DNA of 38,327 nt from an uncultured Porphyromonadaceae bacterium (GTDB lineage: Bacteria; Bacteroidota; Bacteroidia; Bacteroidales; Muribaculaceae), in assembly GCA_947176585.1 (NCBI GenBank), contig CAMWRI010000008.1, positions 1-38,327 of the forward strand, written 5' to 3'. The translations under genes were made by a program, and so were the position numbers. Under the pieces are notes generated by a model. The model saw only the letters and a program-made list of their open reading frames with translations, made no database searches and was not told the origin of the DNA. This document shows positions 26,526 through 28,695 of the stretch, piece by piece. The number at the start of each line of letters is the position of its first letter. The stretch's first letter is position 1.

Positions 26526-27515
26526 ATGACACCCCCTCCCTTTTCAGTATCGGCATATGCAATAAATCTAATCGCGGATATAACCGCGTTATTGGAGAGA
26601 TACAATATCGCCTTGGATGAAGACCACAGTTTAAGGTTACGTAAAGCCAACCGCATAAAGACCATCCATTCTTCACTGGCTATCGAAGGAAATACTCTCA
26701 CTGTAGATGAGGTGCGCGATATCATAAATGGCAAACACATAGTTGCACCCATCCGCCAGATACAAGAGGTAAAAAATGCCATTCGCGTTTACGACATGTA
26801 TTCCAGCCTAAATCCGTTTGACGAAGTGGATTTACTGAAAGCACACGGTATTATGATGGAAGCCTTGGCAGAGGATGCGGGACGGTATCGCGACCGCGGC
26901 GTAGGGGTATTTGGCGAAAAGGGCCTCGTTCATCTTGCTCCACCGCCGCACCGCGTTCCCGAATTGATGCACAACCTGTTTTCATGGCTGAAAGAATCCA
27001 AAGATCATTTGCTGATACGTTCATGTGTGTTTCACTATGAATTCGAATTCATCCACCCGTTTTCGGACGGCAACGGACGTACCGGTCGCCTGTGGCAATC
27101 AATTATTTTGGGCCGTTTGAATCCGATATTTGAGCACCTGCCCGTTGAAAATATGGTATTTGCCAATCAGGAGGCCTATTATAATGCTATTTCCCGGTCT
27201 TCCGAGGAGGGACAGTCAGGGCCTTTCATCGACTTTATGCTCAATGAGATTCTAAACGCTCTCCAAAACAGCAGAAAAGAGATAGCACCCAATAAAGTAT
27301 CCAATAAAGTACCCAATAAAACCGAAGCCACCATTCTGCAACTGCTACAGCACAATCCGTGGTTGACACGCGCCGAACTTGCAAAAAAAATCGAAATGTC
27401 GGACAGCGGTATCAAGAAAGCCCTTGCCAACATGAAGGCTGCGGGGTGGATCGAACGTTTCGGCAGCAATAAATCCGGCCGGTGGATTGTAAAATATAGT
27501 ATTGACAGTAAATAG
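26526..27515 (+). CDS. Fic family protein (AMPylator-type Fic core + C-terminal winged-helix)
   Basis: HPFSDGNGRTGRLWQ Fic motif; N-terminal inhibitory-type motif SLAIEGN; C-terminal TEATILQLLQHNPWLTRAELAKKIEMSDSGIKKALANMKAAGWIERFGSNKSGRW winged HTH. Confidence 0.94.
   Translation: MTPPPFSVSAYAINLIADITALLERYNIALDEDHSLRLRKANRIKTIHSSLAIEGNTLTVDEVRDIINGKHIVAPIRQIQEVKNAIRVYDMYSSLNPFDEVDLLKAHGIMMEALAEDAGRYRDRGVGVFGEKGLVHLAPPPHRVPELMHNLFSWLKESKDHLLIRSCVFHYEFEFIHPFSDGNGRTGRLWQSIILGRLNPIFEHLPVENMVFANQEAYYNAISRSSEEGQSGPFIDFMLNEILNALQNSRKEIAPNKVSNKVPNKTEATILQLLQHNPWLTRAELAKKIEMSDSGIKKALANMKAAGWIERFGSNKSGRWIVKYSIDSK
27288..27323 (+). repeat. In-frame 12-bp tandem repeat (about 3 copies) in the Fic linker
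   Basis: cccaataaagta tccaataaagta cccaataaaacc, encoding PNKV-SNKV-PNKT. Confidence 0.8.
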
Positions 27516-27523
27516 ATAAGACC

Positions 27524-28690
27524 ATGAGCTATTCAGGAATTAAAGAAGCCATCGACACTTTCGATATGACAAGTTATATCGAACAATACCAACAAGCTGA
27601 AGAATATCGAAAAGATTTCGTGAAACGTTTTTCTCTTGACAGAATACGAACAATGGAAATTGATGAATATGTTCAAGGCAAGAGAATAACCGATGATAAT
27701 TTTTGTTATGAATTGGAATGGAAACTTGGTTCTTTAGGTCATATCAATGGCTCCCCAATCAAAAAATTCGGCATCTTCTATAGTCAAAGGCGCAATCAGT
27801 ACGAGGCTACAAGATTATGGAAAAGAAATACCATAAAGGAGTCCATGCTGGCTTTGCGCCATGAGCTTGCTACTTTAATAGAAGCAGGTGAATGTGGTGA
27901 TATGGAGTTGATCCGAAAGGCCCCTTTTTCACGGATGTTTAAAGGGAAAATTCTTGCCACTTATTATCCTGAGAAGTACTTAAGCGTTTTCAGCCTTAAG
28001 CATATCGAATATTTCATTCATAAACTGGGACTTGACCATCTCGTTAAGCCTGATTTTGACATTTTAGACAAACGGTGTATTCTCGTGGGCTTCATGAGGA
28101 GCGATCAGAGAATGAACGCCTGGCCGCTCCATGCTTTCGCACATTTACTTTACAACTATTATCCAAAAGCACCGAAAGGGCAAGTGGATAATTCGACTGA
28201 AACGCTCAAAATTGATTCTATAGCAGGCGATTTTATCTCACTGGAAGACAAGCCGTCTAACCTCCGAAGCGGGAAAGCTGATTATGAGCTTATATCCAGA
28301 AACAATGCTGCATTGGGAGAGCGTGGAGAATATATCGTCATGGAGTATGAAAAAAGCAAACTGAAAGACAGCCACATAAAAAAAGAGCCCGAACATATTT
28401 CAAAAAAAGATGATTCATGTGGCTACGACATCAAATCGTTCGATAATTCCGGTGAGGAAATATTCATTGAAGTAAAGACTACTAATAGTTTGCCAAACGA
28501 TTTCAGGATCTTCATCACCTCAAATGAATTTGAAACTGCGCGAAAGCTTGGCAACAAATATCACCTGTATGTAGTTTTCAATCCAAACAGTTCAAATCCA
28601 AAAATTTACGACATTGGTAATCCTTTTATTGAGGAAGGGAAGGCTAAACTTATACCTGTAACGTACAAATTGCATTTACAGAAGCTCTGA
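27524..28690 (+). CDS. DUF3883 (PD-(D/E)xK-like) domain-containing protein
   Basis: C-term GERGEYIVMEYEKSKL...DDSCGYDIKSFDNSGEEIFIEVKTTNSLPNDFRIFITSNEFETARKLGNKYHLYVV is DUF3883-like. 8-bp gap from the Fic stop. Confidence 0.82.
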   Translation: MSYSGIKEAIDTFDMTSYIEQYQQAEEYRKDFVKRFSLDRIRTMEIDEYVQGKRITDDNFCYELEWKLGSLGHINGSPIKKFGIFYSQRRNQYEATRLWKRNTIKESMLALRHELATLIEAGECGDMELIRKAPFSRMFKGKILATYYPEKYLSVFSLKHIEYFIHKLGLDHLVKPDFDILDKRCILVGFMRSDQRMNAWPLHAFAHLLYNYYPKAPKGQVDNSTETLKIDSIAGDFISLEDKPSNLRSGKADYELISRNNAALGERGEYIVMEYEKSKLKDSHIKKEPEHISKKDDSCGYDIKSFDNSGEEIFIEVKTTNSLPNDFRIFITSNEFETARKLGNKYHLYVVFNPNSSNPKIYDIGNPFIEEGKAKLIPVTYKLHLQKL

Positions 28691-28695
28691 TTAAA

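What the first reader, a model, noticed from the sequence alone, without database searches (positions are those of the whole stretch)
26526..28690. Low-GC two-gene Fic + DUF3883 module inserted between core genes: candidate defense or toxin system
The two genes are 8 bp apart, AT-richer than all neighbours, and sit between ssb and a TPR operon. The Fic protein has a canonical HPFSDGNGRTGR site, a SLAIEGN inhibitory-type motif and a C-terminal winged helix. The partner has a C-terminal DUF3883 domain (GYDIKS...EIFIEVKTT, PD-(D/E)xK-like). Its N-terminal half (FKGKILATYYPEKYLSVFSLKHIEYFIHKLGLDHL...) resembles, by eye, the N-terminal regions of McrB-type restriction proteins but has no NTPase. 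A stand-alone Fic/nuclease-like pair could be an anti-phage or toxin-regulator unit in which AMPylation controls the nuclease-like partner; this mechanism is speculation.
Basis: partly seen in the sequence, partly recalled or inferred. Interest (0 to 1): 0.68.

Follow-up and report, generated by a model that had tools for sequence, protein, structure and literature searches.

The report
Chance-neighbour Fic and PD-T4-1-type genes
Two low-GC genes that look like a new two-part bacterial defence system are more likely two independent, already known kinds of single-gene module sitting side by side: a self-inhibited Fic (AMP-transferring) enzyme and a relative of the anti-T4 nuclease-like protein PD-T4-1.

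Summary
Window 26526-27515 encodes a 329-aa Fic protein and 27524-28690, 8 bp further on, a 388-aa protein ending in a NOV_C/DUF3883 domain. Both are far poorer in GC (0.46, 0.39) than their neighbours (0.60-0.66).

The proposed two-gene system is not supported. The DUF3883 protein matches PADLOC's PD-T4-1 along its full length (E=1.4e-62); PD-T4-1 is an experimentally selected anti-T4 locus. Its relatives occur in many phyla, several beside restriction-modification genes. In 38 such loci no Fic motif lies in the flanks, and none of the Fic relatives examined has a DUF3883 gene beside it. In the host genus, Fic orthologues occur in 12 of 49 genomes, alone and with different neighbours each time; the DUF3883 gene was found only here. 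The Fic carries its own class II inhibitory motif, so no partner need restrain it. A sister species keeps a scar of both genes at the same place, so the juxtaposition is real but lineage-specific.

Best reading: two separate known modules side by side. One new hint: the PD-T4-1 N-terminal domain is shared with McrB-like ATPases, and its model weakly resembles HhH-GPD DNA glycosylases.

The parts
26526..27515 (+). fic gene, 329 aa: class II-type Fic with [S/T]xxxE[G/N] inhibitory motif SLAIEG (about residues 50-55), active-site HPFSDGNGRTGR, PNKV/SNKV/PNKT linker repeats, C-terminal winged helix
27284..27320 (+). three 12-bp tandem units (CCCAATAAAGTR type) coding the Fic linker; the same repeat is preserved in the scar of sister genome G023
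27524..28690 (+). PD-T4-1-type gene, 388 aa
27524..28180 (+). N-terminal helical domain (residues 1-219), shared with N-termini of McrB-like AAA_5 proteins; AlphaFold pLDDT 92.7, pTM 0.89
28325..28612 (+). C-terminal NOV_C/DUF3883 domain (residues 268-363), PD-(D/E)xK-like; E269, E276, D302, E316 and K318 conserved in at least 90% of 27 homologues
28651..28692 (+). 3' end of the PD-T4-1-type gene, 88% identical to a 42-nt remnant upstream of the TPR gene in sister genome G023

Best explanation
The two genes are independent single-gene modules that came to lie side by side in one lineage. The second is a member of the PD-T4-1 family of anti-phage proteins. I infer that its N-terminal domain recognises phage DNA and its C-terminal PD-(D/E)xK-like NOV_C domain cuts it, as a defence needing no partner. 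The first is a solitary class II-type Fic enzyme: its own N-terminal SLAIEG helix blocks productive ATP binding until a signal releases it, and it then adds AMP to a cellular target. It may act as an abortive defence like SoFic, or as a regulator. Shown here: both homologies, their independent distribution, the conserved residues, the scar. Inferred: DNA recognition and cutting, AMPylation, defence.
For: PADLOC PD-T4-1 matches residues 6-385 of the partner, E=1.4e-62, and E. coli/Salmonella DUF3883 proteins at E~1e-204; direct BLASTP of the window protein with the E. coli one is 26% over 338 columns, E=8e-29. 0/38 such loci have a Fic motif nearby, 30 of them with at least 1.1 kb on both sides, and no Fic-relative locus has a DUF3883 motif. 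Fic is in 12/49 congeneric genomes, each time among different ordinary genes; the PD-T4-1-type gene is full length in 1 of 37. In the wider phylum the two families occur in 4/395 and 15/296 other genomes, and the one genome seen with both (G176) has them on different contigs. GC differs between the two genes, 0.463 against 0.386. Neighbours of PD-T4-1-type genes include type I and II restriction-modification, McrB-like, ApeA and Piwi genes. The C-terminus resembles Hjc resolvases, Foldseek probability 0.97 but E=0.1.
Against: The genes are 8 bp apart on one strand and probably co-transcribed, and the pair is old enough to predate the split from sister genome G023, whose scar holds a Fic-linker repeat followed by the 3' end of the partner gene. 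A lineage-specific functional link is therefore possible. The E. coli protein that fits the PD-T4-1 model is only about 26% identical, so the same phage specificity cannot be assumed. No assay was possible.
Confidence: 0.82

Rival explanations
1. A genuine two-gene system: the Fic AMPylates the nuclease-like partner and keeps it inactive until infection.
For: 8-bp spacing, same strand, shared low GC; present together in the ancestor shared with G023.
Against: No co-occurrence in 38 partner loci or in any Fic-relative locus; Fic orthologues persist alone in the genus; the Fic has its own inhibitory motif.
Confidence: 0.07
2. A toxin-antitoxin module with Fic as toxin and the DUF3883 protein as antitoxin.
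For: Gene order and spacing; E. coli SoFic has an antitoxin gene directly downstream (PMC12249575).
Against: That antitoxin, AS1, is 47 aa while the partner is 388 aa and belongs to a family found without Fic elsewhere; Fic orthologues lack it; an inhibitory motif lies within the Fic itself.
Confidence: 0.04
3. Both genes are cargo of one decaying mobile element, acquired together but with no common function.
For: Both are foreign in GC and codon use; the contig ends in G023 and its scar show an unstable interval; in G024 the ssb-TPR interval holds other genes; the closest partner homologue, L015, lies by a fragment that reads by eye like a tyrosine recombinase end.
Against: No integrase, transposase or flanking repeats were found around the pair; the Fic alone is spread through the genus and the two genes differ in GC.
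Confidence: 0.2

Closest known systems
PD-T4-1 (Vassallo et al. 2022, PMC9519451; PADLOC PDLC04021)
   Same: Full-length match of both domains; NOV_C/PD-(D/E)xK-like C-terminus; relatives found near restriction-modification genes
   Different: About 26% identical to an E. coli protein that fits the model; in a Bacteroidales-type genome; phage range unknown; a Fic gene lies directly upstream
SoFic (PADLOC PDLC03963; EcSofic, PMC12249575)
   Same: Fic domain, inhibitory helix motif and C-terminal winged helix in one protein of similar length
   Different: 55.7 bits against NCBIfam's 550-bit SoFic cut-off; no small AS1-like antitoxin gene downstream; closer to PDB 4rgl, E=4.8e-75
McrB-like AAA_5 restriction proteins
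   Same: N-terminal domain is homologous (PD-T4-1 model E~1e-28 on L048 and L053)
   Different: No NTPase here; the domain is joined to NOV_C instead
Other single-gene PD-(D/E)xK defences of the same screen (e.g. PD-T4-8 with DUF4263, related to Shedu)
   Same: Nuclease-fold domain in a one-gene system (from the literature, PMC9519451, PMC10952713)
   Different: Different domain family; no match to DUF4263 in the searches run here

Membership tests
PD-T4-1 | Full-length sequence homology to the PD-T4-1 model | tested here: met
   residues 6-385 on profile 10-377/383, E=1.4e-62; an E. coli protein fits the same model at 1.7e-204
PD-T4-1 | C-terminal PD-(D/E)xK-type domain with conserved D...ExK | tested here: met
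   PF13020 E=1.3e-23; D302, E316, K318 conserved in at least 90% of 27 homologues; Foldseek Hjc probability 0.97 though E=0.1
PD-T4-1 | Works as a single gene | tested here: inconclusive
   Context only: no Fic motif in the flanks of 38 homologous loci
PD-T4-1 | Protects against phage | not testable with these tools
   Needs plaque assays
SoFic | PADLOC SoFic profile, Fic motif, winged helix | tested here: met
   E=6.1e-44; PF02661 and PF13412
SoFic | NCBIfam SoFic equivalog cut-off | tested here: not met
   55.7 bits against 550; hence SoFic-like, not filed as SoFic
Class II Fic | [S/T]xxxE[G/N] inhibitory motif N-terminal to the Fic core, and HxFx(D/E)GNGRxxR | tested here: met
   SLAIEG and HPFSDGNGRTGR read in the translation; the motif rule is from general knowledge
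Conserved Fic-DUF3883 two-gene system | The genes are recurrent neighbours in other genomes | tested here: not met
   0/38 and none in the reverse test; only a scar in sister G023
Fic toxin-antitoxin modules with a separate small antitoxin gene (FicTA, VbhTA, SoFic-AS1) | Small antitoxin gene beside fic | tested here: not met
   about 50 bp upstream (after ssb) and 8 bp downstream, no small gene in either

The most novel reading that the evidence does not exclude
The N-terminal domain of the PD-T4-1 family, shared with McrB-like ATPases, is a glycosylase-like, non-excising reader of modified phage bases (such as the glucosylated hydroxymethylcytosine of T-even phages) that hands DNA to the Hjc-like nuclease domain. 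Basis: its confident model (pLDDT 92.7, pTM 0.89) finds mostly HhH-GPD DNA glycosylases in the PDB (43 of the 50 listed: EndoIII, OGG1, MutY, Ogg2, Mag1). Each match is weak on its own (best E=0.42, TM up to about 0.4) and profile-profile comparison found no sequence homology.
Probability: 0.15. Interest if true: 0.5.

Novelty: new member of a known kind. Interest (0 to 1): 0.22.

Why it matters
It keeps a spurious 'Fic-nuclease' system out of candidate lists, and places a divergent PD-T4-1 homologue in the chromosome of a Bacteroidales-type genus. The useful lead is for PD-T4-1 itself, for which I found no mechanism in the papers searched: its N-terminal domain is also the N-terminus of McrB-like ATPases, which suggests a (modified-)DNA reader and makes its mode of action directly testable.

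Tried and rejected
Viral-contig scan with the partner protein: 4 pattern hits, none confirmed. Phage records: only C-terminal matches. PDB sequence search for the partner: nothing, and with profiles nothing convincing. hhalign of the N-terminal family against same-phylum Nth and Ogg alignments: no support, probability about 0.1%, so the glycosylase resemblance stays a structural hint. Selection on fic: dS saturated; dN 0.18-0.23 against three orthologues, and four further rows were read on the wrong strand and are void. Tree of 27 homologues: the window protein groups with a Bacteroides MAG, with Bacillota nearby, but several forks are weak, so transfer is not demonstrated. Papers linking DUF3883 to Fic: none relevant. 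Papers on Brig-type glycosylase defences do not mention PD-T4 systems or DUF3883.

Full report
Observation. The host is a 2.4-Mb genome in 185 contigs, Bacteroidales-type by gene content and relatives (inferred). GC is 0.463 for fic and 0.386 for the partner, against 0.60-0.66 for flanking genes, and codon usage differs strongly from three neighbours. The two genes also differ from each other, which argues, weakly, against one common recent source.

What the second gene is. Pfam sees only the C-terminal NOV_C (DUF3883) domain, but PADLOC's PD-T4-1 model covers the whole protein, E=1.4e-62. The same model fits an E. coli and a Salmonella DUF3883 protein at about 1e-204, and the window protein aligns to the E. 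coli one over 338 columns at 26% identity, E=8e-29. PD-T4-1 is one of 21 loci selected experimentally for phage protection (PMC9519451; PD-T4-1 itself is treated in its figures, which are not held), and a review lists a PD-(D/E)xK domain for it (PMC10952713). Among 27 homologues E269, E276, D302, E316 and K318 are conserved in at least 90%. An AlphaFold model of the full protein (pLDDT 82.6) finds Hjc Holliday-junction resolvases at the top of a PDB Foldseek search, probability 0.97, but E=0.1. A PD-(D/E)xK nuclease reading is therefore likely, not proven.

The N-terminal half. The PD-T4-1 model matches the first ~230 residues of 880-970-aa proteins whose remainder has AAA_5 ATPase domains, E about 1e-28 (L048, L053), and the domain aligns across both kinds. 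So it is a module joined either to an McrB-like ATPase or directly to a nuclease domain. Modelled alone it is confident (pLDDT 92.7, pTM 0.89). Its PDB matches are individually weak (best E=0.42), yet 43 of the 50 listed are HhH-GPD DNA glycosylases from several families. Many of these are entries of the same few proteins, so they are not independent. Profile-profile comparison with Nth and Ogg alignments gives nothing. I report this as a hint only. DNA glycosylases that excise modified bases of T-even DNA are known as defences (Brig1, PMC11078745), which is why the hint is worth a test.

What the first gene is. A Fic protein with a complete catalytic motif and the [S/T]xxxE[G/N] inhibitory motif of class II enzymes (class rule from general knowledge). 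The closest solved structure is 4rgl, E=4.8e-75. It resembles SoFic by PADLOC (6.1e-44) but is far below NCBIfam's SoFic cut-off (55.7 against 550 bits), so I do not file it as SoFic. E. coli SoFic is toxic and has a 47-aa antitoxin gene downstream (PMC12249575); no such small gene is present here.

Is it a pair? Of 38 PD-T4-1-type loci (genome collections, a plasmid record and an E. coli chromosome filed among plasmids), 30 with at least 1.1 kb on both sides, none has a Fic motif in the flanking DNA; and no Fic-relative locus examined has a DUF3883 motif, while the positive controls are found. The test uses motif patterns and would miss a degenerate Fic. In the genus, Fic orthologues occur in 12 of 49 genomes, each among different ordinary genes where the surroundings were read, whereas the full-length PD-T4-1-type gene was found in 1 of 37. 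In the phylum samples the two families occur in 4 of 395 and 15 of 296 other genomes; one genome has both, on different contigs. Neighbours of PD-T4-1-type genes include type I and II restriction-modification, McrB-like, ApeA and Piwi-domain genes: a defence setting without Fic. No background rate was measured for that enrichment.

History of the site. In sister genome G023 (ssb 98% identical in protein) the sequence upstream of the TPR gene holds a remnant: 33 nt of the Fic linker repeat (94%) followed at once by 42 nt of the end of the partner gene (88%), in the window's order. The repeat is almost confined to fic genes in this genus: outside G023, in 6 of 7 genomes that have it, it lies inside fic. 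So the two genes probably stood here, in this order, before the species split, and were largely deleted in G023; contig ends there limit the reading. In G024 the ssb-TPR interval carries other genes.

Mechanism. Most likely each works alone: the PD-T4-1-type protein recognises and cuts invading DNA; the Fic is silent until its inhibitory helix is displaced, then AMPylates a target. Recognition, cutting and AMPylation are inferred. A regulatory link between them cannot be excluded in this one lineage (about 7%). The finding is a new member of known kinds, of low to moderate interest.

Noticed in passing
1-2756: A second low-GC stretch (GC about 0.38-0.44) whose ORF at 1327-2367 reads by eye like an RHS/YD-repeat core with a variable C-terminal tip, with small genes beside it; Pfam found nothing except a sub-threshold DUF3997.
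   Followed up: partly
27284-27320: 12-bp tandem repeat coding PNKV in the Fic linker, varying among congeneric fic genes and nearly exclusive to fic in the genus, with one stray copy in G465:C123:6382.
   Followed up: partly
L048, L049, L053 (and L050-L052): McrB-like AAA-type proteins whose first ~230 residues are the PD-T4-1 N-terminal domain: a module shared between a single-gene nuclease-like protein and ATPase-type restriction proteins.
   Followed up: partly
L025:6275-7948, L012:5035-6711, L028:6242-7915: A ~558-aa protein (no Pfam match in the two copies scanned) lies directly upstream of, or one gene from, PD-T4-1-type genes, with an AAA_5/MTaX1 protein and a DNA methylase (L025) or a Piwi-domain protein (L012): possibly an uncharacterised defence component.
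   Followed up: no
L027, L029, L037: Nearly identical PD-T4-1-type genes in genomes labelled Lactobacillus and Clostridium (branch lengths near zero): a recent transfer or mis-binned contigs.
   Followed up: no
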